In this document: piece after piece, positions 33,579 to 61,313 of the stretch | Numbering within the stretch: position 1 is the stretch's first letter | Layout: every line of letters begins with the position of its first letter | Assembly: GCF_000697965.2 (NCBI RefSeq) | Contig: NZ_CP015882.1 | Coordinates: 1,146,001 to 1,210,000 of the forward strand | Length of the DNA stretch: 64,000 nucleotides | Source of the DNA: Ensifer adhaerens | GTDB lineage: Bacteria; Pseudomonadota; Alphaproteobacteria; Rhizobiales; Rhizobiaceae | Reading direction: 5' to 3' | Position numbers and translations under genes: made by a program | The notes under the pieces: generated by a model | Database searches by the model: none | The model's input: the letters and a program-made list of their open reading frames with translations, nothing else | What the model was told of the DNA's origin: nothing

Positions 33579-36002
33579 CTACGCCGCAATAGCTCGATCA
33601 TTCTCGTAAAGCTTGGCATCCCAACGACACGTTGTCTGGCCCGTCGTGTTCCTGCCTAGTTCGATCACATTCAACCTGTCGCCAGGAAAAGCGGGGCTCA
33701 GTTCCAGGCACAAGTAGTCGAACAACGACCGTTCGTGCACAGCAAGGACGATCTGCCGATTCATCTGTTTCGAAAGCGTCCGGATCAGCGCCGCGAACTG
33801 GGCGATATGAACTTCGTCCATACTTTGGACCGGATCGTCGATGACGAGCCAGGGAAGCTGAGTCTCCACCGAAAGATGAAGCGCGAGAAAGAGCGTCAAG
33901 GCGGCCGTATTGAGATTGCCGGCACTGAGCATGGCGCGCGGGTTGCCGCCTTTGCCGCCGCGGCGATGGTGTGTTTCGAGAATGGCCTCGATATCACCGG
34001 TGGCGCCGTCGGGAATCGCGAAGGCAGGGATAAAGGGTTCCTCCGGCGCGAGGCGGACGAAAAGATCTCGCCATAGCGCGTTGAGCTCGTCGTTGAACAC
34101 CTTGCGAACCACTTTCCCTCTCGCTTCGCGTGTTTTACGGACGAGATCCTTTGCCGCATCGATAATGCCGTCGGCCTCCGATCGCTTTCCTCGAAGCTTG
34201 GTGACGTCCGTCATCAACTGTTTCCGCTCGTTGCGCAGTGCAGAAAGGGACTCGATCGCGGTCGAAAGAGAAGCGGCTTTGTTTAGAACGGTTCGGCGTT
34301 CACCAAGTCTCTCGTTTAAGACACCTTCCCTGTGGTCGATGGATGAACGCATCCGCCGAAGGAGCTCGCCGGTCGATTCGTGGGACTCCAACGGCACGGC
34401 GATACGATGCGCAAGCGCGATTGTATCCCTCCGAAGCACTTCCATGGATTGATCTGCGATCTGAACCGCGGTAGCGTTTTTGGCGCTATCCGTAGCCGCG
34501 CTTCTCAGATCGTCCCCTTTCTGCATATCGGCCGTGCCCGCATTCAACTGCAGCTCAAAATCGGTGAGATCGGCCAGCCGCATCTTTAAACCTGTGAGTT
34601 CCTCGTCCGGCAGGACATTGGTCCCGACCTCCGAAAGCCTACGCTCCAACTGTGCGATGGCAGCATTCGTATTGGTCTTATCCGACGATATAGACCGGAG
34701 CCGCCCCGCGTGTTCGAGCATGGTGCTGACTTTTGATGCGACATAAGCATTGAGCGGTGTTGCACTCACCTCGTTAAAGTTCCGATCGCATATCGGACAA
34801 TGATCGTCATGGATGTGCGTGCTGAGCTCGAAAAGCGTCCTTGCGAGCACCTCGTTGGTATCAGTCGCGTCGTTTAGCTGCTCATCGAGCCGCGCCATGC
34901 GTGTTCGAGCCTCAACGATCTCTCGGCCAGTCTCGGCTTTTACGCGAACCGCCTCTTCGTGCGAATTCAGAACACCTTCGATCCGCGCGATATCCACTCG
35001 TACGCGTGAAGTTATAGAAACTCTGCGCGATACAAATCCGCTTTCACTAGATACGGCGAGGTCTGCAAAAAGGCCTCCCGCCTGTTGTAGAAGCGCCTCT
35101 ACGTCCTGACCGCGCGTGCGAATCCAATCATCGAACGTTTTTCCGGCCTCATCAGCAACTGATTCAAGCAGAAGTCGCTCGCCCGCACCACTGGCGTTCG
35201 TTGCCCTGTTCCAGGTTTCCTCGAGGACGGCAACTTCTCGCCTCGAACGTTCGAGCGCCATGAGGCCGCTTTCCTCGACAGAAGACTGAAGGCGTGTGGG
35301 CAGTTCCAATATGTCGCCGAGTGTGGCCGCTAGCTCAGGATCAACACGCTTCAGGATTTCACGAACCTCTCCCTCAAGCGTTTCGACGGACGTCTTCAGA
35401 ACGATTTCTCGCTTCTCGAGTTCAGCAATCGCTTTCTCCTTCGCCGCGATCGCGGCACGTGTCTCATCGTACGATGGGACTGGAATCCGAAGGCGCGAGA
35501 TGTTGCCGGCCGAGTGAAGACCGGCGATGATTGCTTCCATGCGATCAAGGCCCAGCAACTCCTTCACGAAGCGGGTCAGAGGCGAATCCGTCTTTTTGTC
35601 GGAATGCTGGTAAATCTCGAGAAGGCGCCCTAGGGTCGATTGAGCAAGGTAGCAACGCTCGCTGAAAAAACTCCCTTGGAGAGGGCTTAGGATCGGAGTA
35701 CCAACAACACCGTCCGCCGTCACTCTCATATCCCCAATAATGCGTTCTCCAGACGCCGTCTCAACATCAACCCTGACTTGCCCAAAAGGCCTGTCCTTGT
35801 GCGGCAGATAAGCAAGGTAGTCGGGTTCTGCGCGCGATAGCGATGGCACGGCCCCAGTAAGGCCCATTTCGATCGCCGACAACAGGCTTGTCTTACCCGC
35901 TCCGTTGGGGCCGTGGATAAGCACAATCGGCGCGTCGAGCGAAACCAATGCCTCACCATCAACGCTTCGAAAATCCTTCATGTAGAGCGACTTCAATCGC
36001 AT
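33579..36002 (-). CDS. SMC/Rad50-like ATPase, probable LmuB of a Lamassu system
   Basis: An 807-residue protein built like Rad50/SMC. The N-terminal half-ATPase has Walker A HGPNGAGKTS (residues about 30-39). Long coiled coils follow and meet at a zinc hook, CPIC (about residues 402-405). Coiled coil then returns to the C-terminal half with signature LSAGNLNTAAL and Walker B LPWLVIDDPVQSMD. In Lamassu (DdmABC-type) systems the SMC protein senses phage or plasmid DNA ends and releases an effector. Here it is third in a tight operon, 3 bp after the small accessory gene. The order effector, small subunit, SMC equals ddmABC. Confidence 0.75.
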   Translation of the reverse strand: MRLKSLYMKDFRSVDGEALVSLDAPIVLIHGPNGAGKTSLLSAIEMGLTGAVPSLSRAEPDYLAYLPHKDRPFGQVRVDVETASGERIIGDMRVTADGVVGTPILSPLQGSFFSERCYLAQSTLGRLLEIYQHSDKKTDSPLTRFVKELLGLDRMEAIIAGLHSAGNISRLRIPVPSYDETRAAIAAKEKAIAELEKREIVLKTSVETLEGEVREILKRVDPELAATLGDILELPTRLQSSVEESGLMALERSRREVAVLEETWNRATNASGAGERLLLESVADEAGKTFDDWIRTRGQDVEALLQQAGGLFADLAVSSESGFVSRRVSITSRVRVDIARIEGVLNSHEEAVRVKAETGREIVEARTRMARLDEQLNDATDTNEVLARTLFELSTHIHDDHCPICDRNFNEVSATPLNAYVASKVSTMLEHAGRLRSISSDKTNTNAAIAQLERRLSEVGTNVLPDEELTGLKMRLADLTDFELQLNAGTADMQKGDDLRSAATDSAKNATAVQIADQSMEVLRRDTIALAHRIAVPLESHESTGELLRRMRSSIDHREGVLNERLGERRTVLNKAASLSTAIESLSALRNERKQLMTDVTKLRGKRSEADGIIDAAKDLVRKTREARGKVVRKVFNDELNALWRDLFVRLAPEEPFIPAFAIPDGATGDIEAILETHHRRGGKGGNPRAMLSAGNLNTAALTLFLALHLSVETQLPWLVIDDPVQSMDEVHIAQFAALIRTLSKQMNRQIVLAVHERSLFDYLCLELSPAFPGDRLNVIELGRNTTGQTTCRWDAKLYENDRAIAA

Positions 36003-36005
36003 CGT

Positions 36006-36653
36006 TCAGGCCTCCGCATCGCGGTCACTATGAATTTCGGATTCTATTTGTTCTTCATCCTCCGCCAGCTCTTCGCCAAGCCAGGAATCGTCTATCTCGT
36101 CGTCGTCATCTTCCTCTCCCAAGGCACGCTTGAGAGCCTCATGAAAGCGCGTTTGGACGGCGTCCTTGCCGAGATTAGAAGCTTCAAGAAGCTCTGCGGA
36201 CTGCTCGGTACTAGGAACGATATCATCATCGCCGACGCCGATGTCATAATCACTAAGCACGCCCGATGGGAGCTTCAGAGGAAGCAGGATCGATAGCTTA
36301 TCCAGAAGGTCCTTTGGGTCGGCTGCTTCCTCCACTGCGAGAATTCGCCCGACCTGTGAAAGCGCCTGCAAATTCCTCCCAACCGGGCGCGGGCCGACGA
36401 TGATCGAGGTCAGGGGCCGTTGCGAGCGCATCACATCGAGAGCACGGGCAATGCCCTCGATCTGCTGGACCACCTTTCTTTCGCCGTTCGCCGCCATGTC
36501 GCCGACGATCACCAGATCGGCGGAATGTCCAACCCCGACAAAAGCGCCGGCCACGTCGAAGACCAAACCCGCGATCTCCAACGGTGTGTCTAGGCGACGG
36601 TACCCCGCGTTCCCCAAAACTGCCGCAACTCTCTCCGCAGGAATTGCCGTCAT
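36006..36653 (-). CDS. Small accessory subunit, probable LmuC of a Lamassu system
   Basis: A 215-residue protein with no catalytic motif that I can see. The N-terminal two thirds look like an alpha/beta domain (LVFDVAGAFVGVG, DLVIVGDM, LTSIIVGPRPVG), and the last 40 residues are extremely acidic (EEDDDDEIDD and following). The gene overlaps the SIR2 gene by 4 bp (ATGA) and is 3 bp before the SMC gene. Size, position and lack of catalytic residues fit the LmuC/DdmB subunit that bridges SMC protein and effector. The assignment rests on context. Confidence 0.6.
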   Translation of the reverse strand: MTAIPAERVAAVLGNAGYRRLDTPLEIAGLVFDVAGAFVGVGHSADLVIVGDMAANGERKVVQQIEGIARALDVMRSQRPLTSIIVGPRPVGRNLQALSQVGRILAVEEAADPKDLLDKLSILLPLKLPSGVLSDYDIGVGDDDIVPSTEQSAELLEASNLGKDAVQTRFHEALKRALGEEDDDDEIDDSWLGEELAEDEEQIESEIHSDRDAEA

Positions 36654-38359
36654 AGGGCCACCTTGTTTCGAAAGCGTTCCAGAAGATCCTCTACCTCGGT
36701 GCCTTCTGCAAGCAGTTCCTCGACGCTCACCTCACGAACCGGGGCCAGTCCTGTTCGGCCCGGCGGACGTCGAGGTGATCGATGCATCGGGGCAGGATTG
36801 AACTGGCTGTGTACGACGACGGCATCATCATTGTCCGCCAGCAGGCCGTTAGTGGTCAAGCGAATGGCCGCGCGATGATCGCTTGCAAAAAAGATCTTCG
36901 CCGCGCCACTGCGTCCCACCAAGCCAAAGGCACCAGAGTCTACTGCAGAGGTATTTGGCCCTTCTGCGGCCCAGAGTCCTCTGTCCAAGCCCAGACCCAC
37001 TAGACTCAAAGCAACTGCGAACTCGGCCATTCCTCCACTCGTGAGGTTGGGATTCGCACTCATTAGTTCCAATGGCTCAGCGGACAACGGGCTATACAAG
37101 CCGTTTGCAGCGGTTGGCAGCGCTCCCTCTCTGAGCATTGTCATGGTCCGACCTATCATGGTGATCAGGCTCACGACGTCGTCCGCACTCGCAGTCACCT
37201 TGTCAGCCACAAGATTGCGACCGTGCTCAAGCCCTTCTGCTAGCTTCGCCCTATCAAATTCCTGTATCGCCGGGAATCCTTCACGCAATAGGCATGTCAG
37301 TTTTTGCGTGAGGACGAACAGGAGCAATGCCAAGAGAAGCGGCTTGGCGAAAGCCTGAACGAGCGCGTCGGCTCTGATCGCTGTGCGGGTTCCAGCATTG
37401 AATTCCTGATGATAGACATTCTGAAGCAAGCTTTCCTGATCCCCTCCAACAGCGTTTTCAGCGAAAGCATAAGCTGGCGGATGAGCCGGGAAGTGCCAAG
37501 GCATCTGAACCTGAGCACTGGCGAAGAGGCTCTGGATATTCGAGTCCTGCGCAGAAAGGCCGAGCATGAGGGTCGGTTTGGTAACGATTAAGTTGATGAG
37601 GGCGTTCGCCATAACTGGGTTGTTTGCGACCCAGCCATTGATCTGGTTTTGCCTCGCTACAAGCAGCGGACGAAACTTTGCTGGATCTTCTAAGGCTGAT
37701 CTGGCGCAGCCATGAAACTTGTAAAGATTAGTGCGCCTTCGTCCTGCCCTAGTATCGCCGGGGGCGATGGCGATGCGCTGAATTGGCTTTCCGCCACCTA
37801 GGATGCCTACAGCCTTCTCGACGAGCGAATCCCAGTTCGCCGACGGCATCTCGGACGCAACCCCTTCCATGGCGAGGGCCGCTAGGCAGAGATGTTCGGC
37901 GTCGGGCTCGATCGTAAGATCAGAGTAGACGGCAGCTCCATTCAAGACGTCCCAGAGGAGATAGTCTGCCTCCTCGCCCTCGACCGTCACTCCGAGCATG
38001 CGCGCGTAGTTGTTAACTAGGCGTCCGGCTAACGCTTCGAAGGCTGGCCACAGATCCGGACTGGTCGAGTAGTCGATTGTGTCACACTCCTCGGGACTCG
38101 GTGCTGCGTGACCGATGACGGAATCAAGAGCGGCGCGAAAACGACAATGCGGATCGTTTTGATCAATCCGCCCCTGAAGCGAAATAAGGATTCGCTTCGC
38201 CAGACTTTTCAGATCCGGCATCCGCTCTCGCGAGATGCCAGACCCCAACCAGAAGACATAGCGATCGTTGGCGACGCCTTCTGCCAGCTCCCTCTTCGGC
38301 CCGTCCAGCATAGCGAGGGTCTGGGAAATCGATATCGTCGCCGCAGGAGGAAGTGCCAT
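36650..38359 (-). CDS. SIR2-like NADase effector, probable LmuA of a Lamassu system
   Basis: A 569-residue protein with an N-terminal SIR2-like domain. VFWLGSGISRERMPDL (about residues 34-49) is the nucleotide-binding GxGxS turn. SANWDSLVEKA (about 172) stands for the TxNxD motif, and LYKFHGC (about 215) carries the catalytic histidine. In many defence systems such domains destroy NAD+ and stop the infected cell. The C-terminal half (residues 330-569) is unrecognised and may hold the interface to the other subunits. It is first of three tightly packed genes, consistent with the Lamassu-SIR2 subtype. GAGG lies 7 bp before the ATG. Confidence 0.75.
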   Translation of the reverse strand: MALPPAATISISQTLAMLDGPKRELAEGVANDRYVFWLGSGISRERMPDLKSLAKRILISLQGRIDQNDPHCRFRAALDSVIGHAAPSPEECDTIDYSTSPDLWPAFEALAGRLVNNYARMLGVTVEGEEADYLLWDVLNGAAVYSDLTIEPDAEHLCLAALAMEGVASEMPSANWDSLVEKAVGILGGGKPIQRIAIAPGDTRAGRRRTNLYKFHGCARSALEDPAKFRPLLVARQNQINGWVANNPVMANALINLIVTKPTLMLGLSAQDSNIQSLFASAQVQMPWHFPAHPPAYAFAENAVGGDQESLLQNVYHQEFNAGTRTAIRADALVQAFAKPLLLALLLFVLTQKLTCLLREGFPAIQEFDRAKLAEGLEHGRNLVADKVTASADDVVSLITMIGRTMTMLREGALPTAANGLYSPLSAEPLELMSANPNLTSGGMAEFAVALSLVGLGLDRGLWAAEGPNTSAVDSGAFGLVGRSGAAKIFFASDHRAAIRLTTNGLLADNDDAVVVHSQFNPAPMHRSPRRPPGRTGLAPVREVSVEELLAEGTEVEDLLERFRNKVAL

Positions 38360-38697: not shown

Positions 38698-38946
38698 TCA
38701 GGGAGTTCCTGGACCAGGCCACTCCCCGCTTTGACGCATATCTGAAGCCACCGTGAGTACACGCAGCGTGCACGCCCCAATGACACCGTCTACCCTTAGG
38801 CCCTTCCCCAGCACAGAAGAAGAGGCCCCTATCTGGTTTGCCCGACGTTGAAATGCTTTTGTTAGTCTTTTACCGTCGCTTGATTTCAGATAGTCATTAC
38901 CCGGATTCGCTGGTAGTCCGTAGCCTAGAGCGGCAAACTCGACCAA
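38698..38946 (-). CDS. Small protein resembling a peptidoglycan-binding domain
   Basis: An 82-residue protein. The pattern FAALGYGLPAN, then LTKAFQRRANQIG, then LRVDGVIGACTLRVL follows the PG_binding_1 fold (aLGY...AFQ...vDGviG..T), although the order of the pieces is somewhat unusual and the match is by eye. There is no signal peptide. It is the last gene of the unknown four-gene operon, 18 bp after the 992-residue gene. It could recognise cell-wall fragments or serve as a docking module. Confidence 0.55.
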   Translation of the reverse strand: MVEFAALGYGLPANPGNDYLKSSDGKRLTKAFQRRANQIGASSSVLGKGLRVDGVIGACTLRVLTVASDMRQSGEWPGPGTP

Positions 38947-38964
38947 TATAGATCGCTCGTTAGG

Positions 38965-41943
38965 CTATTGAGCCGCGTTATATGGAACACCGTCGCAGGT
39001 CGCAGTGGAAGGCACGTATGGGACTGGATTTCCGGGAGGCCGAACTTCCCAACTTGGCAGCTCCAGATCATCTGTGTCGATGCAAACTAGGTTGGTCGGC
39101 AGCTTGATCTGCCAAGGCGCTCCTTCAGCTACTCCCTCTTGATCGGGCGTATCCGAAATCGCACTGTCGATTGCCTTAATCTCATCTATGATAGATAAGT
39201 ATTGAGGGCTCCCTATTACAGGGGCATCACCGTCGGCCCACAGAATACCTGTTGTAATATAAAGGCTAACGTGATTCTCGTATCCTCTGCGAACGGGAAC
39301 GACTACCCGACTGTATCCGGCCCCAAGGAAGCGAGCAAATACCGGGTCAGAATTCCCCGCTGCAAGCTTTTCGGGCCACGTACTCTTGCGTCCCCAGAAA
39401 TATGGGTAAAAGGTGTATACGATATTTTCCCATTCAAATGAATGCTCAAAGAAACGGACAATTGGAGCTTCTTTCAATGCGGCACTGTTGTCGATAACCG
39501 GCACGTGATCGACCAGGTTGATCGAAGAGAAATTGTCAAAGTGTTGGTTGGTTAAAAGCTCTAACGCAGCCCGTTTCAGTTCTCCTTTCTCAATACTTCT
39601 ATACTCAATGTCGTTCCTAATAGATATATTCTGCTGTCCAAGTTTGGCCTCTGCAATTCTTCGATCAAAGTCCTCCTTAGCAAGTTTATATGATGTACTT
39701 ATAGCAGCATAGGCTTCAAGCTGCCACTTCGAAAGCGCCTCATCCGTACGTTGCAGAATCAACGATACGCCGCACATCCACTTAGTCGTGTTGTATCCCC
39801 AGCCCCGCAGCCGAATGTCCTTTCTAAGCGGCGGGTAAAAGAATTTCGTCGACGCCCAATACTCTGTGTCCCACATCGTACTTCCAATTGCGAAAGTTAG
39901 GAACGCTCCGTCGCCCCTAACATGTTGAAAGACGTAGGTCGCGTAGGCGTGAACCGCCTCATAGTCATCTGGAACAGTGAACTTACCGCTGTCCGGCCCG
40001 CCCCCCCCGGCTTGGTCCTCTGCTAACAGGGTGATCGGACCGCGAAACTGAAATGCTTTGGGTGGCTCGGGGATGTCAGCGTGATACTTTGCCGAAAGGC
40101 CTTTATAGTTATCTACAGTGATGTCTTCTGCGGTTATGTTTGGCTCCTCCGGTGGAATCATATTGCCCTGTTCTCTGGGGGCAGCCTGTTGACTGTATTG
40201 GTAGTATGCCGCAGGTTCTGGGACCCAGAACTCGATCATCAGGCGGCTTCCGTAATTTAGAACTTGGCACCAGTAATGCTTGTCAACATACCGGTATAGT
40301 CCAACAATCGACTTGTCACCGCTTGCGAAGGAATGCTTATTTGTTTCGGTCCGCTCGGAGATCATCACTACCGTCTGCTGTCTTCTCGTCTTCTTTTGAA
40401 TTCTCTCTATAGCTCGCGAGATAGTCTCTCTAACGTTTTTCTGTGAGACCTTGATTGACTGCTCAGCGGCTTGACTGTTGCTAGTCTTCGCGTTTGCTGA
40501 CATTGAAACCGCGCCATAGGACGCAGTTACATTGATACCGGCTTCCGATTGCTTTTCATCTTTCCTAATCGACTCAAGTTCCTGGGATAACTCGAAACGA
40601 TCGGTCGATTGGAGGTCTTTCTCGGACTCTGTTGTTTCTTCGGTTTCAAGTATTATCTGCTGCTCTGTGCGATCCAATAAAGTATGAATACGTTCCCTAG
40701 CCTCTCCGGCAAGAACATTCTCTATATGAGCAACCTCTCCAAGCGCATATTTCTGAAGTTGCTGCTTTACAATTTTCAAATCACCGATGCCTGCAGGTTG
40801 TATCGGATTTGGATGGGAGACATCCTGGAGAACGCTCGAAAGACCTGGCCCTGCCCCGAACGCTACTTGGACGCAAAGTTGCTCAGCCGTAGCCTGTATT
40901 TGCGGAATGGCTCCCCTCGCGATCGACTCAGCAACCTGTTCCAGCGCCCTATCAGCTTGAATCATCGCTGACGTGGAGAGTGGGGAAAGAAGCGTAGAGG
41001 TGACAGCTAACGCCGCATTGTCAAGTTGATTGGAAAGGGAAAAAATGCTGGCCGTGGCCAATACTCCTCCCGGTGACAAAGATGTGAGGAAGGCCTGCAA
41101 ATCCGGCATAGCTCCCAGGCGACCTATAGCCGCCGCATGGAGCACAAAGTCGTTAGTTGCATTAGGTGTGCGTACGACATCATTTTGGCCGTCTGAAGTA
41201 ACGACAGCAGCGGGATCGGGAGTAGTACCGATCTCATTTGCAGAGATTGATTGCGCTAGAAACCTCCTGCCGGCGCGCGCAAGAAGCGCAGTTTTTACGT
41301 CTTTAACTAAGGCATCGAATTTCGCCTCTTGGGCGGCCGTTTGAGCTTCAGTTTTTTGTTTCCGCCGGTCCTTCTGCGCCCAATCTATGAAGGATTTGAG
41401 ATCCGCAGGGATTACAATGTCAGCCCAAAAAACCCGTTCATCCGCGTTCGACTGGGTGGCCGAATGGTATTGCGCGATATGTAGAAGCCGAAGGATTGTA
41501 AAAAGGCTGTTGGCGTCGTCCGGGTTTCTGCCAGAAATCAGGCGCGCTGCTAAATGATCCCATACATGGATAGATATTTCCGGCCCCACCCCCCCTTGCG
41601 CGAATAAGTCCGCATACTTTCCCTTGATAAGGCTATTGATGCCTTCCAGATCACCCTCACGGATTGCATCTCCAATCAAGCGAGCAACGTCCGAGCTATC
41701 GGTGAAAGTCGCGAAGTTAGGTATGGTACCAACGTTGTTGGCACTTAAGAAAGAGTCCGCGACGCTAATCAACTGTGTTGATGAAGCGTTACCAGCCACG
41801 GCGGCTGAAAGATCGCTCCACAGTTGCGTCTGTTCTGGGGGGCGGTTGATAAAATAATATTTCAGCGCGTCAGCACTCGGTGGCCGACTGGCTCTGACCA
41901 GAGCAAACTTATTGACTATTCCACCCGGTGCTTCCGCAATCAT
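38965..41943 (-). CDS. Large protein of unknown function (992 residues)
   Basis: I cannot assign this protein to a named family. Residues 1-340 are mixed and mostly helical. Residues about 415-545 are highly charged and probably coiled coil, rich in Glu, Lys and Gln. They lead to SIVGLYRYVDKHYWCQVLNYG and RLMIEFWVPEPAAYY (about 555-580). A beta-rich part follows, then a helical hairpin (WQLEAYAAISTSYKLAKEDF, about 740). The C-terminal block has IVRFFEHSFEWENIVYTFYP, YFWGRKSTWPEKL and FARFLGAGYSRVVVPVRRG (about 830-880). The last blocks look strongly conserved, and I have an unverified impression of similar ends in large proteins of distant bacteria. No signal peptide or membrane span. Its DNA is more AT-rich than the nearby DISARM genes. 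Confidence 0.75.
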   Translation of the reverse strand: MIAEAPGGIVNKFALVRASRPPSADALKYYFINRPPEQTQLWSDLSAAVAGNASSTQLISVADSFLSANNVGTIPNFATFTDSSDVARLIGDAIREGDLEGINSLIKGKYADLFAQGGVGPEISIHVWDHLAARLISGRNPDDANSLFTILRLLHIAQYHSATQSNADERVFWADIVIPADLKSFIDWAQKDRRKQKTEAQTAAQEAKFDALVKDVKTALLARAGRRFLAQSISANEIGTTPDPAAVVTSDGQNDVVRTPNATNDFVLHAAAIGRLGAMPDLQAFLTSLSPGGVLATASIFSLSNQLDNAALAVTSTLLSPLSTSAMIQADRALEQVAESIARGAIPQIQATAEQLCVQVAFGAGPGLSSVLQDVSHPNPIQPAGIGDLKIVKQQLQKYALGEVAHIENVLAGEARERIHTLLDRTEQQIILETEETTESEKDLQSTDRFELSQELESIRKDEKQSEAGINVTASYGAVSMSANAKTSNSQAAEQSIKVSQKNVRETISRAIERIQKKTRRQQTVVMISERTETNKHSFASGDKSIVGLYRYVDKHYWCQVLNYGSRLMIEFWVPEPAAYYQYSQQAAPREQGNMIPPEEPNITAEDITVDNYKGLSAKYHADIPEPPKAFQFRGPITLLAEDQAGGGGPDSGKFTVPDDYEAVHAYATYVFQHVRGDGAFLTFAIGSTMWDTEYWASTKFFYPPLRKDIRLRGWGYNTTKWMCGVSLILQRTDEALSKWQLEAYAAISTSYKLAKEDFDRRIAEAKLGQQNISIRNDIEYRSIEKGELKRAALELLTNQHFDNFSSINLVDHVPVIDNSAALKEAPIVRFFEHSFEWENIVYTFYPYFWGRKSTWPEKLAAGNSDPVFARFLGAGYSRVVVPVRRGYENHVSLYITTGILWADGDAPVIGSPQYLSIIDEIKAIDSAISDTPDQEGVAEGAPWQIKLPTNLVCIDTDDLELPSWEVRPPGNPVPYVPSTATCDGVPYNAAQ

Positions 41944-41960
41944 TGCAACCTCCCTACAGG

Positions 41961-42353
41961 TTATTTTGTGAAAGCAGCGCGCAATTGATTGACCGCGTAT
42001 GGTAGGAACAACGCTGCGCCCGACAGAAAGTACCCTGAAAGGCTGGTGACAAAGTTTCCAACATCCGCCGGGGCAACGAAGGCTTTAAACAAGACCACGT
42101 TCCCAACAGCCCAAAAGAAAGCGGCCATTGCTACGCCGCCAATCAGCCCAATGACTCGACTGTAGCTAGTCTCGTCAGGAACTGTGGGCGGCGCATTCGT
42201 GTAGCCTTGGAGTGCTGCAGGCCTCGCTTCTTCAGTTTTTTCCTTAACAGCAGAGCGAATGTCAGTGTTATTAAGTACAACTGATAGAAGTTTGATAACA
42301 GCGAGGTTGTATATTGCAAGAATCGCATACATTAGAATGGCTTCCTGGGTCAT
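41961..42353 (-). CDS. Small membrane protein of the unknown operon
   Basis: A 130-residue protein with three likely membrane segments: residues about 6-27 (ILMYAILAIYNLAVIKLLSVV), 68-88 (GLIGGVAMAAFFWAVGNVVLF) and 103-121 (FVTSLSGYFLSGAALFLPYAV). A polar cytoplasmic or periplasmic loop joins the first two. It lies 14 bp after the caspase-like gene and 17 bp before the 992-residue gene, so it should be made with them. It could be a pore, an anchor or an effector target. No family is recognised. Confidence 0.7.
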   Translation of the reverse strand: MTQEAILMYAILAIYNLAVIKLLSVVLNNTDIRSAVKEKTEEARPAALQGYTNAPPTVPDETSYSRVIGLIGGVAMAAFFWAVGNVVLFKAFVAPADVGNFVTSLSGYFLSGAALFLPYAVNQLRAAFTK

Positions 42354-42367
42354 GGCGCGCCTCTGCC

Positions 42368-43414
42368 TTATGCGGGGTTGTACTGAAGATAGTTTAGTCC
42401 TTCTTTATCTGTGGGTATTCCAAAGACACTTCGATATGTTTGAACGACATCGCGAATTACACCGGGAACTTCCATGTCCACACCGTTATCTTGAAAGGTG
42501 GCATAAGTGCCAGGTCCCGCGGCATACGCTCGCCGACCAGTGGCGTCAGCTAAGCGTTGGGCGTAGGTGTCTGTGAGCTTATCCATTATAAAAGCTCGCA
42601 GTGATCCGACGTTGATCTCGAATGTTCCGGCTCGTTTGGTGGGCTTAGCCAGATTCGGAGCTATAAAGTTGATCGAGGACAGCTCATAATCTCGCGGAAT
42701 TATTCTCACGTATGACTCTGGATTGCTACTTGGCGTGATAGGCGGTTTCGCACGCCGTATGACTCGCATAAGTCGCATTACATCTTGATCGCTGTTGCAT
42801 CCCCAAATCCAACTGGCACCGCCATCTGCAAATGCTGTCTTCCAGTAGGCAAGCGCTTCCGCCGATTGGACTGTGGCGAGAAAATCCTGCTTTCGTGGAT
42901 CAAGGTCGGCGGGATCTCTTTTCTCGCCCGGCATTTGCTGAAGGGGGACAAGCCTTGCGTGTGGGCCATCGCCAACAACTCTTTGGTATGCCCATGTGTT
43001 TGTCAGTATTGGCCCATCCGCGTAGGCATGCGAAAAAAAACTGAACTCGACGATTTTGCCGTTGACAGCACTCACTTGCTTTAGCGTTTCAGAGTATATG
43101 TCCACTATGGAAATAATCTTGTCGAGTCGCTTAAACGGAACATGATCGCCGTTAGCAAGTCGTTTGTACTGGTCCGGTCGGATCGGCTCCCGCAGTGCTG
43201 AGGACGATCTCACAGGTGCCGAAGTATTGGGCTTGTATATAGCCCGCTTGATCAATCCGGCCCGCACATCAAAAGTAATCGCCATGAACTGACTCGAGCG
43301 AAACTTACGCGCAAGAAAGCGCTCTCGAGAAAGGCAACACCGATCCCAATGATTCTTCTTGTCCGGGCTGTATTCATGCCCAGCAATCAAGATGGCGACT
43401 AAGGTAGAAGCCAT
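42368..43414 (-). CDS. Unknown protein with a candidate caspase-like His/Cys pair
   Basis: A 348-residue protein, first gene of the operon. It starts with a strand (STLVAILIAGHEY). The segment VEFSFFSHAYADGPILTNT holds His129 and GASWIWGCNSDQDV holds Cys206, each at the end of a predicted hydrophobic strand. This is the layout of clan CD (caspase-like) hydrolases, where a histidine in an S-H-G-like turn and a cysteine after the next core strand form the active site. The resemblance is by eye; the family is not one I can name. I start it at 43414 after GGGGGGA; a GTG/ATG at 43447 would add 11 residues. Confidence 0.65.
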   Translation of the reverse strand: MASTLVAILIAGHEYSPDKKNHWDRCCLSRERFLARKFRSSQFMAITFDVRAGLIKRAIYKPNTSAPVRSSSALREPIRPDQYKRLANGDHVPFKRLDKIISIVDIYSETLKQVSAVNGKIVEFSFFSHAYADGPILTNTWAYQRVVGDGPHARLVPLQQMPGEKRDPADLDPRKQDFLATVQSAEALAYWKTAFADGGASWIWGCNSDQDVMRLMRVIRRAKPPITPSSNPESYVRIIPRDYELSSINFIAPNLAKPTKRAGTFEINVGSLRAFIMDKLTDTYAQRLADATGRRAYAAGPGTYATFQDNGVDMEVPGVIRDVVQTYRSVFGIPTDKEGLNYLQYNPA

Positions 43415-43963: not shown

Positions 43964-45871
43964 TCAGTCATTAGGAGTGAAGAAAGCCGCAGATCCTGCG
44001 ATGGTTTCGACCAATAGATTCCGGTCTAAATACACGTTGCGTTGTTCGCAACTCGTTTCGGCGATGAGCAGACAGCCGTGGCAGGCCGCGCCATGGAGCG
44101 CTCGGTCCTCTGATGCTTTGGTTGGGTCGTGATCAGCACAGATGGGGTCACCAGAACATAGCCCGAGACGGCTGAGAGCAGACGCCATGACGCCCGGGAA
44201 GCGGCGCGTGACCTCGACCAGACCGCCGAGCGTTCCCTGATTACCGGCGCTGGCGGTATAGATGAGGATACCGCATTCCTTCGGCTGGCCTGGTAGACCA
44301 GGAATTAGATAAAGGCGCTCTTTCAACGAGCTCGCGGGATAGCCGCAGTCGATCGCCACCTCGTTGATCAGAGCATGAGAAAGGCTATGCGCCATCGTGT
44401 ACTCGATGTGCTCTCCTTCCCACGCCATCTTGTCTGAAGCGCCACGGTCGCGACGCGATTTCTTCCAGGCTCTGAGACCGCCTTCCAAGACAGATCTACG
44501 CTCTCGAACCGCTGATCGCGATGCCCACGCCATTAGCGCAACAGGGTCGAAGCGTATGAAAAAGCCTTCACCGTACTGCTCGATCGCCGGCAACCATTCC
44601 GGAACCTCGCCTAGCGGCGCGCCGTTCACAGCGAGACCAACATCCTCCACCCCATCGTCAGCCAATGGGGCCGGTTCAAAGCGCGTGAAACCATAGAGGC
44701 AGGACACCTCCCGAAGCCGGTGGACCGCCACTAGGTCCTTGATCCCGGCAAGCATAGGTTCACGTTTCGGATCCCAGAGGTTTCGATCGAGCGTTTCGGC
44801 ATGGAGTCGGGCGTCGGGGCGGTTCTCGCCGATTAGCGCGCGCCCGCTCGCCAGCAATTGGAACTCAGCAATCCGAGGATTCATCTGGTCGGTCTGATCC
44901 GAATTCTTTCCGGCCGCTGTTCGAGCTTCTATTCGAGCGAAGACGTCGGTATCGGAGAATGGTCCTAGGTTCGCCGCGACAACTGGGTTGAACCGTTTCG
45001 CCATGGCGACCTCGATTGCGGACGAGCAGGTGCTCACGTTCGACCACACCACGTCGAGCGCCTTGTCGAGCGCGTCGTTCGCTTGGGGCAACGAGATCAC
45101 ACGTACGATCTGAGGAAAGTATGTGTTGGTTGCACTCCGGGTGAGGAGCCGGAGTGAAATGTCGCAGCCGTCCGGATCGTCCGGACCAATCCAAGGTCTC
45201 TTGCCGCTGCACGGCCCGAGCCGACCGGGTTGAAAAAGCTCCTCCAGCGAAAGCTGCGCGCCGCATTCACAGACGATGCGAGTGTCGCGGGGATCGGCGC
45301 TCGTACCGGAATCCTCGAGCCACATCGCCCTACGGCAGGCACCGCCTTCGCCCCGCGCCTCGCCAAAGCGCCCGGCATGCACGACGCGCCGCCACTCGAT
45401 ATCCTGCAAGTGCCCCTTCTCGCATCCGCAAACGAACCGGAGCGGCGAGGCGTGGCGCGTCTTACCGTCGTCGCCTTTCCAGTCGAGCCGCTTCGGTGCC
45501 TCCAGTTCACTGAAGCGGACGATGCGGCGTCGGTTGGGTGCATCGCCGGCGATGGAGTCGCAGGCGAACCACTCCGGAAACACCTTCGCCTTGATGGCCG
45601 GTGACGGTAAGCGCGGGTTTCCGGGATCAATCGGCGGAGTGCGGAAACTAAGCGGCTTTTCTGAGGAAATTCGCTTGTCATTGCCACCCGCAAGCCGGCG
45701 CTCCAGCAACTGCGCGAGCCGCGGTTCCTCGATTGGCTGGAATGCCTGGGGACCGAAGGATTCCCAATGGTCGAGTCCCATCACTAGGACGGAACGGTCG
45801 GGCAGATCCATCATCGCACCTGGCCCAAAAAGCCCGACCACTTGCCCCATGCGTATCTGGTCTTTTGCCAT
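43964..45871 (-). CDS. drmB: DISARM protein DrmB (DUF1998)
   Basis: A 635-residue protein with the DUF1998 domain of DrmB. The start IRMGQVVGLFGPGAMMDLPD is typical. The C-terminal half has HSLSHALINEVAIDCGYP (about residue 495) and several cysteines that probably bind zinc, including FVCGCEKGH, IVCECGAQL and ACHGCLLIAETSCEQ. DrmB forms the core DISARM complex with DrmA and binds DNA during restriction. It lies 8 bp after drmA. In most DISARM loci drmC follows; here the next gene belongs to the unknown operon, about 550 bp away. Confidence 0.9.
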   Translation of the reverse strand: MAKDQIRMGQVVGLFGPGAMMDLPDRSVLVMGLDHWESFGPQAFQPIEEPRLAQLLERRLAGGNDKRISSEKPLSFRTPPIDPGNPRLPSPAIKAKVFPEWFACDSIAGDAPNRRRIVRFSELEAPKRLDWKGDDGKTRHASPLRFVCGCEKGHLQDIEWRRVVHAGRFGEARGEGGACRRAMWLEDSGTSADPRDTRIVCECGAQLSLEELFQPGRLGPCSGKRPWIGPDDPDGCDISLRLLTRSATNTYFPQIVRVISLPQANDALDKALDVVWSNVSTCSSAIEVAMAKRFNPVVAANLGPFSDTDVFARIEARTAAGKNSDQTDQMNPRIAEFQLLASGRALIGENRPDARLHAETLDRNLWDPKREPMLAGIKDLVAVHRLREVSCLYGFTRFEPAPLADDGVEDVGLAVNGAPLGEVPEWLPAIEQYGEGFFIRFDPVALMAWASRSAVRERRSVLEGGLRAWKKSRRDRGASDKMAWEGEHIEYTMAHSLSHALINEVAIDCGYPASSLKERLYLIPGLPGQPKECGILIYTASAGNQGTLGGLVEVTRRFPGVMASALSRLGLCSGDPICADHDPTKASEDRALHGAACHGCLLIAETSCEQRNVYLDRNLLVETIAGSAAFFTPND

Positions 45872-45879
45872 AGAGGACC

Positions 45880-48800
45880 TCAGCTCAGCGTGTTACCGAA
45901 ATTGTCGATGATTTTCAGGACCGACGCATGTTCGACGTCGCGCATCGAACGACCCGCCTTAAAGGCTTTAAGGTCGGGATCGAGGCCCGCCAGCAGCGGA
46001 TCGAGCGGCTGGTGTAGTAGCGCCTGAGTGCCCGGATAGCCGTAGTAAAGTCTCTCAGCGTTTCCGCGACGGTCGTCGGCGATTCGTCGCCAGGTGGTGA
46101 GCAACTCCTCCACGATGGTCTTGAGTGCAGCATGTCCTCCGACAACTGATTCCGGGGGTGCACGGGAGAGGATCACGTCGACAATCTCCGGCACCAGCAC
46201 ATGGTCGGGCATCTCAACAGCGTTGCGCTCGTCGGTCAGCTCCGGATGCAGGTGCCGAACACAGGCCACGATGACGGCGGCCAGTGCTCGGTCGATCGCT
46301 CGTGCCGCCCAAGGCGTCACGCTGGTCGGTTCGACGACGCGGTAGAACGCTGCATGGAACTGGCGGAAGCGCTCGAAGTGTAGGCGATCGCGCGGCTTCT
46401 GTGCGTTGAGGAGTGTCACCACCAGTCCTGGCTTGTCTGGCAATCTCCCTACGCGGCTCGATGCCTGAATGTACTCCGAGGCCGACTTCGGCTGTCCCTG
46501 CATCAACATCAGCCCTAGGCGACCTATGTCGAGGCCGACGGAGATCATATTTGTGGCGAGCGCTACATCGACGCCCGCCTTGTCGGCGGCCACCACCGCA
46601 AGCGAGTCCTTCGCCGCGGCCACCTTGTCGGTGCTTTCGCGTGAGGTGAGTTCGAGCACGTCGCGCATGCGACGGCTCGCGAAGGGCTGATCGGGTGGGG
46701 CGACGCGCCGCCGCTTGTCTCCGTAGTCTGAGAGATAACTGCGCACCTCGTCTTCAACGATGCGTCGTGCGCCACCGAGTTCGCGCAGCGCGTTGAAATA
46801 GCCAAGCGCGGTCATATAGGGATCGGCGTCGTTGCCCTCGTCAGCCTCCTTCTGGGCGGCGGCGAGCAACGTGGTCAGCGTTCGCAGGAAGACGAGCTTT
46901 GGGCCCTTGCCCGGAGCGGCGAGTCCTAAGTACAGCCGCGCTGGACGTTGGGTCGGCGGTACGGTCTCTGCAAAGAAGCTGTCGCGTCGGTCTGGACCCG
47001 GTGGAGGAAAGATCTCGGTGGTCTTGCGGTCGAAGAGCGCCTTGATCTGTGCCGTGGCGCGCCGGACGGTCGCCGTGGAGGCGACTATCTTGGGTCGAAC
47101 ACGTAGGCCCATCATCGTTCGACTAGCAAGCCGATCGAGAGCAACTTCGTAGAGCGCCGCGACCGTACCGAGAGGTCCGCTGATCAGGTGCAGCTCGTCC
47201 TGGATAATCAAGTCCGGCGGGTCGAGTGCGAACCCGTTGCCTAGCGGCCTTCCGTCCCCCGCCTTATCGTTCGCGCCGTAAAAGCCCCATTCGTCCGTGC
47301 GGTTCACATGGCCGAAAAAGGCGCCCGCCTCGCCGAGCCAGGGAAGCCCAGCGAACTTGTCGACGGTGGCGATTATGAAGGCCGGGAGTCGACGGTAGAT
47401 CGCCTCGTCGACGGTAAGAATTGGCAGCGCCCGCCCGCCGGTGAAGTCGCAGTCCGCATTGGTACAGCGAATCTCCATGTTCTTCGGTGCAATGGCGTTA
47501 GGCGTGCAGGCAAAGCTGTCGGCTGTGAAGGGCTCCGCGCACCATGGGCAGGCCTTGATCGGCGCTGGCGCTTCCCGGCCTGAGGTCTTAAAGCGCTTGA
47601 CGCGGATGACCGCCGTGTCCGGATTGGGGTTGCCTTGGCCGCCGAGACGGTTCGGCGATGCGGCGGACCCGACCCAAAGGCCGATCTCGATCGGCCAGTC
47701 ACCCAGGAGACGCTGCGTGCCTTCCATCCAGGCAGTCTCGCCACGCATCAGTTCCAGCGCGCAGACAACGCCCGCCGCGCGCGACAACTGGTCGAGCGTG
47801 AGCAGACGCAGCGTATAGCGCATCAGCACCGAGACGCCCGCGCCAAGTTTCCCGCCCGCCGTCAGGCGGCGATGAGCAATTGTCCAGGCGGCGAGGCCGA
47901 GATAGGCTTCCGTCTTACCGCCGCCCGTCGGGAAGAACAGCAGGTCGACGATTTCCCGGTCCTCGTGCAGCTTGTCCTTCAGGCCGGGCAAGTTGAGCAG
48001 CACGAAGGCGAGTTGGAACGGCCGCCAAGTCGGCTGCTTCTGCGCCGCCGGATCGCCGTTGCGGCCCGCTGTGCGCTGCCGTGCCGCACGGGCGACGGCC
48101 TCATTCATCGCCTGGAAGGCCAGCCGCGCCCACTTGTCCTTCTTTAGGAGCGCGATGCCCGCCTCGATGCGTCTCTGTGCGCGGCGGGCAGCATCAAGCA
48201 GTCGGTCAGCAGTCCTACGCCGCGGCTCTCCGTCAATGTTTCGGATACCGCCCGCTTCGGTGTCGATCCAGCTTGCGTATTCGCGGGGAAGGCCCGAGAG
48301 CGCGGTTACCAGCGCATCCGGATCGCCTGCAGCGAGCGCCGCCAAATCGTCCATGCCAAACGATGCCCTGATCCGTTCGTTTGGCTCGACCCGTTCCACC
48401 TCTGCCATGGGCAAGAAGTCTGTATGCGCGGTACGCACTACGCCATCCTCGTCCGGTACCCAGCCTGCAGACGCGGCGTTGCCGACCGCGAACTCGGCCA
48501 CGTCGCGATAGTGGAGATCGGCGGTTGCTGCGTCCGGATCGTCGGAGCCGAATCCTGTCATATCCGTGCGAGGAAATAGGGGCAGGTGGCTGCGGACCTC
48601 CAACTTGACCTGAAAGGCAAAGGTCACGTCCGCAAAGCGGCGGCGCGCCGGGTCGCGGCGGTTGACGAGCATGATCGTGAGCGCCACGACGTCGGCGTTG
48701 CTGCCATCCGGCTGCTTGAGGCCGTAGGGCCGCGCGAATGCTTCGACGACCAGGCCGCCACCGGGGCGCTGTTTGCCAGCCGAACCCTCAAGCGTACGGA

Positions 48801-49332
48801 CGATGCGTTCCCCTGGATTCGGTACCGGAATTGTCACTCGGGCCATGCCAGGAATCCGCTGCCACGCAACGTTCCTGTGTTTCGGGTCGAATGCAGCCGC
48901 GTCATCAATGAAAACTTCCGGCGGCAGTGGCGGCTCGGTTACATAGTCGCCCCAGGTCGCGTTTACGTCGACTGTTTCTGCACGTGCATCGACCAGCACG
49001 GTCAGCCCGCACGCGGACGGTGCGAGCGGTCTCCTTGGGGCAGGATCGTCGGGCGCGGTATCGTCGGCTGCACGAGCATTTCCTGTCTCCGGATCTTCTT
49101 GCTCTTCCCCGTCGGTGACCATATCGCCGGTCTCCTCCGGCTGATCCACTTCATCAACGCCGTCCGTTGGAGCTGGCACCAGGAATCCTGTGAGGTACCA
49201 GCGCGACGGATTGGTATCGAGTTTCTCGCCCGCAATGTCTATGTCATGCAAGTCGGGTCCGATCAGATCGCGCCGAAGAGTTTCGACGAGACGACCGCGG
49301 ACGGCTGTTGGCGATTTCGGATCGATGCTCAT
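45880..49332 (-). CDS. drmA: DISARM helicase DrmA
   Basis: A 1150-residue superfamily 2 helicase-like protein. Walker A is in FFPTGGGKTEAYLGLAAW (about residue 460) and the DExH-type box in LIIQDELHLISGPLG (about 709). Motifs V/VI are in ATNMISVGLDIGRLGLML and YIQASSRVGRLPDKPG (about 970-1000). A cysteine cluster (CPWCAEPF, then CTNADCDF) suggests a zinc ribbon in the insertion. DrmA is the DNA-translocating core of DISARM. The ATG at 49332 follows GTGGGA. It is preceded by an unusual extra gene and followed by drmB at 8 bp. Confidence 0.92.
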   Translation of the reverse strand: MSIDPKSPTAVRGRLVETLRRDLIGPDLHDIDIAGEKLDTNPSRWYLTGFLVPAPTDGVDEVDQPEETGDMVTDGEEQEDPETGNARAADDTAPDDPAPRRPLAPSACGLTVLVDARAETVDVNATWGDYVTEPPLPPEVFIDDAAAFDPKHRNVAWQRIPGMARVTIPVPNPGERIVRTLEGSAGKQRPGGGLVVEAFARPYGLKQPDGSNADVVALTIMLVNRRDPARRRFADVTFAFQVKLEVRSHLPLFPRTDMTGFGSDDPDAATADLHYRDVAEFAVGNAASAGWVPDEDGVVRTAHTDFLPMAEVERVEPNERIRASFGMDDLAALAAGDPDALVTALSGLPREYASWIDTEAGGIRNIDGEPRRRTADRLLDAARRAQRRIEAGIALLKKDKWARLAFQAMNEAVARAARQRTAGRNGDPAAQKQPTWRPFQLAFVLLNLPGLKDKLHEDREIVDLLFFPTGGGKTEAYLGLAAWTIAHRRLTAGGKLGAGVSVLMRYTLRLLTLDQLSRAAGVVCALELMRGETAWMEGTQRLLGDWPIEIGLWVGSAASPNRLGGQGNPNPDTAVIRVKRFKTSGREAPAPIKACPWCAEPFTADSFACTPNAIAPKNMEIRCTNADCDFTGGRALPILTVDEAIYRRLPAFIIATVDKFAGLPWLGEAGAFFGHVNRTDEWGFYGANDKAGDGRPLGNGFALDPPDLIIQDELHLISGPLGTVAALYEVALDRLASRTMMGLRVRPKIVASTATVRRATAQIKALFDRKTTEIFPPPGPDRRDSFFAETVPPTQRPARLYLGLAAPGKGPKLVFLRTLTTLLAAAQKEADEGNDADPYMTALGYFNALRELGGARRIVEDEVRSYLSDYGDKRRRVAPPDQPFASRRMRDVLELTSRESTDKVAAAKDSLAVVAADKAGVDVALATNMISVGLDIGRLGLMLMQGQPKSASEYIQASSRVGRLPDKPGLVVTLLNAQKPRDRLHFERFRQFHAAFYRVVEPTSVTPWAARAIDRALAAVIVACVRHLHPELTDERNAVEMPDHVLVPEIVDVILSRAPPESVVGGHAALKTIVEELLTTWRRIADDRRGNAERLYYGYPGTQALLHQPLDPLLAGLDPDLKAFKAGRSMRDVEHASVLKIIDNFGNTLS

Positions 49333-49381
49333 AGTTCCCACTCACATTCGTCGGCGTCCCGCGACACCCGCTAACCCAGTC

Positions 49382-50188
49382 CTATACGTAGACGGCTTCC
49401 CGTCCTTCCTGATAGTCGCCCACCACCCAGATGAAACTCTGGATGTCGATCCTGTCACGCGGATGCATGTCCGCCAGTTCCCGCTCTGTCTTCCCGACGA
49501 GATCGAGCAGGCTCTCGTAGACCGGCAGGCAAAGCCGCGCTTCGTAAACGTCGGCGAAACGGTGGCCGACGCGGGTCGCGAAATCCTTGGTGGCTTCAGG
49601 CTTAAGGAACATGTGAGTGGCGGGTCGCCAGAGATATGGCAGGTAGGTCGCGACAGTCCATTTCGCGTTGTCGTGCGGCTTCAGCGCGTGCTCCATCGCA
49701 AGAAGGTGTGACTTGTTGCCATCCAGCGTGAAGCGAGCTGCAGCCTGGACGAAATCGTCGGCATGGGGACCACGCAGCACGTCCTGCAGCCGCGTCTTTT
49801 CGAAGGGCGAGAGCATGTTCGTGGCCCGGAACACTGCAAGCACCGCTTCGCCGAATCCTGTCCCATCGACCGCCTTTTCGAGCGGCGCTGTATCGTCGAG
49901 CTTAGCTTTTGCCGCAAGCTTGTAGTTGCGCTCCTGCGATGCATATCCGTCGGAATGGAAGCCCTTCGGAAAGAAGGTCAGGAAGCGCTTCCTGGCCCCG
50001 TCGAAGCCGAAATATTTCGGGTCGCTCTTCCCCGCGTCATCGTGCAACTGCCGCCAGACGTCGTCTGCGTCGTCTCCCTCGGCGCAGCGAACGCCATCGG
50101 CGAGACCGAAGTAGCGGTTATTCATCCGAACGAGGCGAAGCTCCTTCTTGCCGAGCTTGGCGGATCGGATCGTTTCGGCCTTGCTCAT
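49382..50188 (-). CDS. Unknown protein encoded inside the DISARM operon
   Basis: A 268-residue protein with no domain that I recognise. Notable stretches are RFLTFFPKGFHSDGYASQER (about 75-95), FRATNMLSPFEKTRLQDVLR (about 125-145), AKWTVATYLPYLWRPATHMF (about 180-200) and the end RIDIQSFIWVVGDYQEG. No HKD motif is present, so it is not a DrmC phospholipase. The start at 50188 is chosen because codon third positions turn GC-rich exactly there and GGAG lies 9 bp upstream; a frame to 50281 is less likely. Its place between drmMI and drmA, in the same direction, suggests a DISARM-associated role. Confidence 0.75.
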   Translation of the reverse strand: MSKAETIRSAKLGKKELRLVRMNNRYFGLADGVRCAEGDDADDVWRQLHDDAGKSDPKYFGFDGARKRFLTFFPKGFHSDGYASQERNYKLAAKAKLDDTAPLEKAVDGTGFGEAVLAVFRATNMLSPFEKTRLQDVLRGPHADDFVQAAARFTLDGNKSHLLAMEHALKPHDNAKWTVATYLPYLWRPATHMFLKPEATKDFATRVGHRFADVYEARLCLPVYESLLDLVGKTERELADMHPRDRIDIQSFIWVVGDYQEGREAVYV

Positions 50189-50302
50189 TCTGGCGTCTCC
50201 AGGTTCGAAACGCTTGTCAGCCTTGCTGCCATGCGCTCCTCGATGTGTAAGCGCATGCTGCCATCGTACTTGGCCATCCATGCCGTATGAAAAACAATGA
50301 TA

Positions 50303-54199: not shown

Positions 54200-54201
54200 G
54201 C

Positions 54202-59573: not shown

Positions 59574-61306
<1,733 letters not shown>

Positions 61307-61313
61307 CCAAGCG

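What the first reader, a model, noticed from the sequence alone, without database searches (positions are those of the whole stretch)
38698..43414. Unrecognised four-gene operon with a caspase-like candidate
Four minus-strand genes packed with 14-18-bp gaps: a 348-residue protein with a possible His129/Cys206 pair, a three-span membrane protein, a 992-residue coiled-coil protein with a highly distinctive C-terminus, and a peptidoglycan-binding-like protein. The set sits between two known defence systems and differs in base composition. A protease, a membrane protein and a large sensor- or toxin-like partner recall abortive-infection layouts, but none of the known ones is matched.
Basis: inference. 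Interest (0 to 1): 0.82.

Follow-up and report, generated by a model that had tools for sequence, protein, structure and literature searches.

The report
Carrier protein with swappable enzyme partner
A predatory soil bacterium carries a gene cassette that pairs a large, widespread, undescribed protein with a caspase-like protease; in other microbes the same large protein is paired with other toxin-like enzymes, which points to a modular weapon or cell-death system.

Summary
The ORFs are real, but there are three genes, not four. The 82-aa 'peptidoglycan-binding-like' ORF is the 3' end of the large gene, cut off by one in-frame stop. The 348-aa protein does have a caspase-like (clan CD) predicted fold: all 50 rows shown are clan CD by title or recall, and His129/Cys206 are kept in 18 of 18 family sequences, itself included.

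The main finding is the 992-aa protein. It has no match in Pfam, NCBIfam, PADLOC or PHROGs, yet 304 stretches of public genomes encode relatives, in bacteria and archaea. Beside it, usually directly downstream, lies one gene of changing kind: patatin, arginine deiminase, Het-C, M23 peptidase, or this caspase-like family among others. On a tree of its core, partner type changes at least 26 times among 65 labelled loci. It has a conserved amphipathic beta-hairpin and no obvious signal peptide.

My reading: a constant, probably membrane-inserting protein with an exchangeable enzyme. Whether it attacks other cells or kills its own infected cell is open; most neighbours tested at other loci are not defence genes. 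Host: Ensifer adhaerens Casida A, a predatory strain.

The parts
42368..43414 (-). Caspase-like (clan CD) protein, 348 aa; the variable 'enzyme' partner of this cassette. His129 codon 43028-43030, Cys206 codon 42797-42799
   Evidence: ORF; AlphaFold2 pLDDT 89.8; fold matches; H129 and C206 in 18 of 18
41961..42353 (-). Membrane protein, 130 aa, no recognised family; candidate immunity or membrane partner specific to this cassette
   Evidence: ORF; no family; two hydrophobic segments in a crude scan; no phmmer match in the other fetched loci
38965..41943 (-). Large constant component, 992 aa: helical N-terminal domain, long beta strands 383-407 and 549-575, jelly-roll 628-733, C-terminal alpha/beta part
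   Evidence: 57 proteins, itself included; 304 genomic stretches; model pLDDT 78.5; no whole-fold match found
40477..40548 (-). Family-wide amphipathic beta-hairpin of the large protein (residues 466-489), putative membrane-inserting element
   Evidence: alternation score 0.63, maximum 0.55 in 500 column shuffles; column hydrophobicity
38698..38964 (-). 3' end of the large gene beyond the in-frame stop; equals the C-terminal domain of intact rhizobial/Acidovorax relatives
   Evidence: same frame, no further stop until 38698; homology

Best explanation
This is one example of a widespread two-component cassette. A large constant protein (called A1 here) is paired with a partner, often an enzyme, that is swapped between lineages; here it is a clan CD cysteine protease. 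Shown by computation: the pairing, the repeated partner exchange, the predicted protease fold and conserved dyad, the absence of an obvious signal peptide, and a conserved amphipathic beta-hairpin in A1. Inferred: A1 assembles on a membrane, inserts that hairpin as part of a beta-barrel, and so damages the membrane or lets the co-encoded enzyme reach its target. Most likely the target is another cell, with release by lysis or another non-classical route, as in binary and polymorphic toxins. The 130-aa membrane protein may be an immunity factor (inference only). In this strain A1 lacks the C-terminal domain because of the in-frame stop, so it ends near where the tail-less members of the family end.
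For: 304 stretches of public genomes encode A1 relatives; the 87 tree rows span 12 named bacterial and archaeal phyla. Same-strand gene within 130 bp downstream in 63 of 76 loci, against 17 of 68 upstream and 208 of 461 control pairs. Partner Pfam families among 55 scanned: patatin 10, PAD 6, Het-C 4, and single muramidase, M23, PhoD, Rv2525c-like glycoside hydrolase, amine oxidase and PT-TG. Partner type changes at least 26 times on the A1 core tree (200 shuffles of the labels: mean 46.8, minimum 42), and caspase versus other at least 8 times. Caspase-like partner beside A1 in 9 other loci. Clan CD fold. Amphipathic hairpin. No hydrophobic N-terminal segment by a simple hydropathy threshold in any of 51 A1 proteins. 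Two of three viral contigs carry A1 within a few kb of holin and endolysin or tail-lysozyme genes. The host genome has no match to the T6SS sheath VipB or to the gp19/eCIS tube, so A1 here would have to work without them.
Against: No experiment. A1 has no fold match to a known pore-former among the rows seen, and the hairpin region is low-confidence in the model (block means 37-42). No docking domain is shared across the partner groups. At least 27 of 55 partners have no Pfam family, so 'enzyme' is unproven for about half. No secretion signal is known and no immunity gene recurs. This locus lies in a defence island. The stop codon may mean that this copy is decaying. The Foldseek match of the protease has low TM-scores (0.26).
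Confidence: 0.5

Rival explanations
1. Intracellular defence (abortive infection): A1 senses infection or membrane damage, and the partner enzyme kills the cell from within; the caspase-like protease, patatin, PAD or Het-C are interchangeable suicide effectors.
For: No obvious signal peptide on A1; neighbours are DISARM and SIR2/SMC genes in this window; patatin partners weakly match CBASS-type phospholipase effector models, 7 of 55; carried on plasmids (13 records) and by three viral contigs; in 1 of 16 genus genomes.
Against: At other loci at most 8 of 90 tested neighbours match PADLOC models, and neighbours are mixed housekeeping genes. Cell-wall hydrolase partners (muramidase, M23, Rv2525c-like) make little sense inside the cell. 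No nucleotide-binding or known sensor domain in A1.
Confidence: 0.25
2. Cargo of a contractile injection system (eCIS or T6SS): A1 is a loading or shell protein and the enzyme is the payload.
For: gp19-type tube genes in 18 of 46 A1-bearing genomes against 17 of 299 evenly drawn Pseudomonadota; Het-C and caspase-like domains are reported in PVC-linked toxins (PMC3482391, passages).
Against: The comparison is not matched for taxonomy. The host genome has no VipB match (E. coli control rang) and no gp19 match (no control rang there, but the same query found 17 of 299 genomes, G000 among the misses). No injection-machine family is among the 25 of 104 families shown for 90 neighbours.
Confidence: 0.08
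3. Decaying remnant: horizontally acquired, low-G+C, with the large gene interrupted, and no present function.
For: In-frame stop that cuts off the C-terminal domain; lower G+C than its near surroundings; patchy distribution, 3 of 301 relatives for A1 and 1 of 397 for the protease, the host included.
Against: The rest of A1, the protease and the membrane gene are open frames, and A1 and the protease keep the invariant residues of their alignments. 13 of 23 relatives in alignment A1 naturally lack the tail.
Confidence: 0.15

Closest known systems
Clan CD cysteine peptidases (caspase, legumain, C11 clostripain/iotapain, GPI8, MALT1)
   Same: Predicted fold; His and Cys just after the two core strands; 'SHG' in 6 of 18 members and Gly before the Cys in 18 of 18
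   Different: 5-15% identity in the structural rows, no sequence-family match; Gly after the His in only 6 of 18; conserved RDPxDxDxRxxDF insertion between His and Cys; activity untested
Polymorphic toxin systems (Zhang et al. 2012, PMC3482391, passages seen)
   Same: Constant part plus exchangeable toxic enzyme; overlapping enzyme kinds (Het-C, caspase-like in the passages seen; PT-TG by Pfam name and recall)
   Different: Enzyme is a separate gene, not a C-terminal domain; no known trafficking domain, no obvious signal peptide, no recurrent immunity gene
Binary pore-forming/enzymatic toxins and beta-barrel pore-formers (recalled, in kind only)
   Same: Amphipathic beta-hairpin between two long strands; separate enzyme gene next door
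   Different: No fold match found; no obvious signal peptide; one carrier family serves many partner families
Lamassu/CBASS-type defence operons (recalled, with PADLOC rows)
   Same: Operon with effector; patatin effectors also in CBASS; this locus is in a defence island
   Different: No PADLOC match for any of the four ORFs; no sensor ATPase or nucleotidyltransferase recognised in the cassette

Membership tests
Clan CD peptidase (features from PMC4357240, passages) | Caspase/haemoglobinase fold | tested here: met
Clan CD peptidase | His and Cys at the C-terminal ends of core strands 3 and 4 | tested here: met
   His129 follows strand 119-127, Cys206 follows strand 195-203; 18 of 18 conserved (two pairs of these rows are near-identical); superposition of the dyad itself was not seen
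Clan CD peptidase | Glycine adjacent to the catalytic histidine | tested here: inconclusive
   Residue after His: Ala 9, Gly 6, Ser 3 of 18
Clan CD peptidase | Peptidase activity with strict P1 preference | not testable with these tools
   needs assay
Polymorphic toxin system | Exchangeable toxic enzymes next to a constant component | tested here: met
   toxicity itself not tested
Polymorphic toxin system | Toxin fused as C-terminal domain to a trafficking protein with known export signal | tested here: not met
   separate genes; no signal-like segment by a hydropathy threshold in 51 of 51 A1; no Pfam domain at its cut-off in A1 or five relatives
Polymorphic toxin system | Cognate immunity gene | tested here: inconclusive
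   130-aa membrane protein has no match in the other fetched loci
Known anti-phage defence system | Match to a described component | tested here: not met
   none of the four ORFs matches PADLOC at E 0.1
Known anti-phage defence system | Homologues cluster with defence genes | tested here: not met
   at most 8 of 90 neighbours at 1e-10; this window's copy does lie among defence genes
Beta-barrel pore-forming toxin | Amphipathic membrane-inserting hairpin | tested here: inconclusive
   the amphipathic pattern is there; membrane insertion is not shown
Beta-barrel pore-forming toxin | Fold of a known pore-former | tested here: inconclusive
   none recognised among the 50 rows shown; mainly the jelly-roll part was matched
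T6SS/eCIS effector | Contractile machine in the host | tested here: not met
   no VipB (E. coli control rang) and no gp19 match in the host genome

The most novel reading that the evidence does not exclude
A1 defines a previously undescribed family of autonomous protein-translocating pores, shared by bacteria and archaea, that delivers whatever enzyme is encoded next to it. The Ensifer version delivers a caspase-like protease into prey bacteria during predation.
Probability: 0.15. Interest if true: 0.93.

Novelty: new variant of a known kind. Interest (0 to 1): 0.72.

Why it matters
A large protein family, encoded by 304 matched stretches in a collection of one genome per species and without a match in the family libraries scanned, appears to be the constant half of a modular enzyme-delivery or cell-death cassette. 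[quoted passage not shown]

Tried and rejected
Rejected: the 82-aa ORF as an independent peptidoglycan-binding gene; dependence on T6SS or eCIS in this host; a suspected eCIS gene inside L021, which turned out to be a coordinate coincidence on reading its ORFs. Led nowhere: sequence search of solved structures for A1 and the protease (chance rows only); fold search for A1, where the rows are unrelated beta-sandwiches, mainly on the jelly-roll at 628-733, no row reaches Foldseek E 0.001 and I recognised no known pore-former, which is not proof of absence; a docking domain common to the partners: 8 of 496 profile pairs exceed 80% probability, and they link only a few groups with one another; A1 in annotated phages, no match; caspase family in viral contigs, 72 pattern matches, none confirmed. 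A further protein search with the 12-row caspase alignment added two members only. Literature: searches returned no paper; some searches returned 13, 14, 15, 12, 4 and 18 papers, of which 10, 10, 10, 10, 4 and 6 were listed; none listed is recognisable from title or start of abstract as describing this pairing. Preprints and most subscription journals are not held.

Rows left out or hand-picked: partner container A5 has 55 proteins (8 of the 59 candidates left out, 4 loci added, 2 replaced by a neighbouring ORF); neighbour container A6 has 90 of the 119 candidates; PF06841 was sought in the genomes of 46 of the 80 genomic loci. ORFs in the fetched loci come from a simple longest-ORF caller, so some neighbours may be wrong: 4 loci (L005, L036, L037, L043) had no A1 ORF called and 9 more had no adjacent partner by the rule used; L036 and L037 were recovered. 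Tree labels accept a partner within 2.5 kb on either strand, and the caspase label and the rare labels were set by hand. Two of the 13 types (c7 and X12) may be remote relatives, which would lower the 26 changes slightly.

Full report
What is there. On the minus strand lie ORFs of 348 aa (42368-43414), 130 aa (41961-42353), 992 aa (38965-41943) and 82 aa (38698-38946). None matches a Pfam, NCBIfam, PADLOC or PHROG family at a meaningful level. The 2-kb windows that cover the block have G+C 0.50-0.53, below those on either side, though the far right end of the window is as low. The genome searched as G000 has 7,267,502 bases in 3 contigs, the size given for Ensifer adhaerens Casida A in PMC5701487 (whole text read). 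The stretch is 100% identical to plasmid unnamedB of strain Casida A-T305. Casida A is described there as a facultative predator of Micrococcus luteus.

Three genes, not four. The 82-aa ORF begins 18 bp after the stop of the 992-aa ORF, in the same frame, with no other stop between. In 10 of the 23 relatives of alignment A1 the corresponding sequence is the C-terminal domain of the large protein, and the tail alone finds the large ORFs of L001, L002 and L003 among the fetched loci. The other 13 relatives have no tail. So one in-frame stop cuts a tail off in this strain lineage; intact copies exist elsewhere. Whether the stop is read through or the gene is decaying cannot be told.

The large protein is the constant part. 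A protein search gave 57 proteins, itself included (only the 7,999 best candidates were scored). A genome scan matched 378 stretches, of which 304 encode a relative; the best 80 were kept as loci. With the window and other fetched loci, 87 core sequences span 12 named phyla, including haloarchaea and a methanogen. In the host's surroundings it is rare: 3 of 301 relatives, host included, and 1 of 16 genomes of the genus; the protease was found in 1 of 397, the host.

Partners. A same-strand gene lies within 130 bp downstream of A1 in 63 of 76 loci, against 17 of 68 upstream and 208 of 461 other adjacent pairs. Of 55 partners scanned with Pfam, 10 are patatins, 6 protein-arginine deiminases, 4 Het-C, 2 VWA7_N, and single members are muramidase, M23 peptidase, PhoD, Rv2525c-like glycoside hydrolase, amine oxidase and PT-TG; at least 27 have no family at E 0.001. 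Profile comparison of 32 groups (31 of partners, one of another neighbour) found no docking domain shared across them; 8 of 496 pairs exceed 80% probability. The caspase-like family is next to A1 in L003 (Acidovorax), L025 (Bacillus), L036 and L037 (Pseudoxanthomonas), L052 and L069 (Bacteroidota), L054 (Chloroflexota), L057 (Verrucomicrobiota) and L084 (Tsukamurella plasmid): six phyla. These were found through A1, so they do not show how often the protease occurs without it; in the plasmid collection both protease hits, one of them this strain, lie beside A1. On a FastTree tree of the core, 65 labelled loci of 13 partner types need at least 26 changes; 200 shuffles of the labels need 46.8 on average, minimum 42. 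Partner type is thus inherited for a while and often exchanged. For example, the Bacillus protease cassette sits inside a PAD clade, and the Anaerolineaceae protease cassette is sister to a Neobacillus Het-C cassette. Support was mixed (43 of 84 inner branches starred), and labels allow a partner within 2.5 kb on either strand.

Mechanistic hints in A1. The model (pLDDT 78.5, pTM 0.65) shows a helical N-terminal domain, two long strands (383-407, 549-575) that bracket a poorly predicted insertion, a jelly-roll (628-733) and a C-terminal alpha/beta part. Mainly the jelly-roll resembles known folds, and only as a common beta-sandwich. Inside the insertion, residues 466-489 (block pLDDT 37-42) alternate across 51 homologues between columns that are hydrophobic (alanine counted) in 56-100% of rows and columns that are so in 0-22%, with one exception at 48%. 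Scored as a hairpin this gives 0.63, against a maximum of 0.55 in 500 shuffles of the columns. Shuffling columns ignores ordinary beta structure, so this shows an amphipathic hairpin, not membrane insertion. By a simple hydropathy threshold none of 51 A1 proteins and 6 of 55 partners has a signal-like N-terminal segment, against 25 of 90 other neighbours.

Context. Two of three viral contigs with A1 carry it within a few kb of holin and endolysin or tail-lysozyme genes; the third carries a patatin gene upstream, by eye. At other loci the next neighbours are mixed housekeeping genes (25 of 104 families shown), and at most 8 of 90 match a defence model at 1e-10. The position of this copy in a defence island is therefore not typical. 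Tube genes of contractile systems occur in 18 of 46 A1 genomes and in 17 of 299 evenly drawn Pseudomonadota, a comparison not matched for taxonomy. The host itself has no VipB and no gp19 match.

Conclusion. The abortive-infection reading is possible but not favoured. The larger finding is the constant protein with exchangeable partners, for which I saw no description in the listings. Toxin-type action on other cells is my first choice (about 0.5), self-killing defence second (0.25).

Noticed in passing
33579-38359: Three-gene minus-strand set: SIR2_2 protein, 215-aa protein without family, and SMC-like ATPase with best PADLOC match LmuB; looks like a Lamassu-like system with a SIR2 effector (recalled).
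   Followed up: partly
43964-57369: DISARM-like cluster: DrmB by NCBIfam and PADLOC, a DrmA-like helicase by eye, two further large ORFs not scanned, and a 299-aa ORF at 49382-50281 with no PADLOC match.
   Followed up: partly
L045, L049, L051, L053, L055, L058: A1 appears split into two adjacent genes: an N-terminal piece of 346-417 aa and a C-terminal piece of 594-642 aa.
   Followed up: no
L069:10819-13149: Tandem caspase-like protein of 776 aa whose first unit seems to lack the His motif while the second keeps it, like a pseudoenzyme-enzyme pair.
   Followed up: no
L086, L087: A1 cassettes on viral contigs close to holin and endolysin or tail-lysozyme genes, a usual place for cargo genes.
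   Followed up: partly
A1-bearing genomes behind: gp19/eCIS tube genes in 18 of 46 A1 genomes against 17 of 299 Pseudomonadota; unmatched comparison, and physical linkage was not tested systematically.
   Followed up: partly
61231-61308: Single tRNA-Met(CAT) gene found in the window.
   Followed up: no
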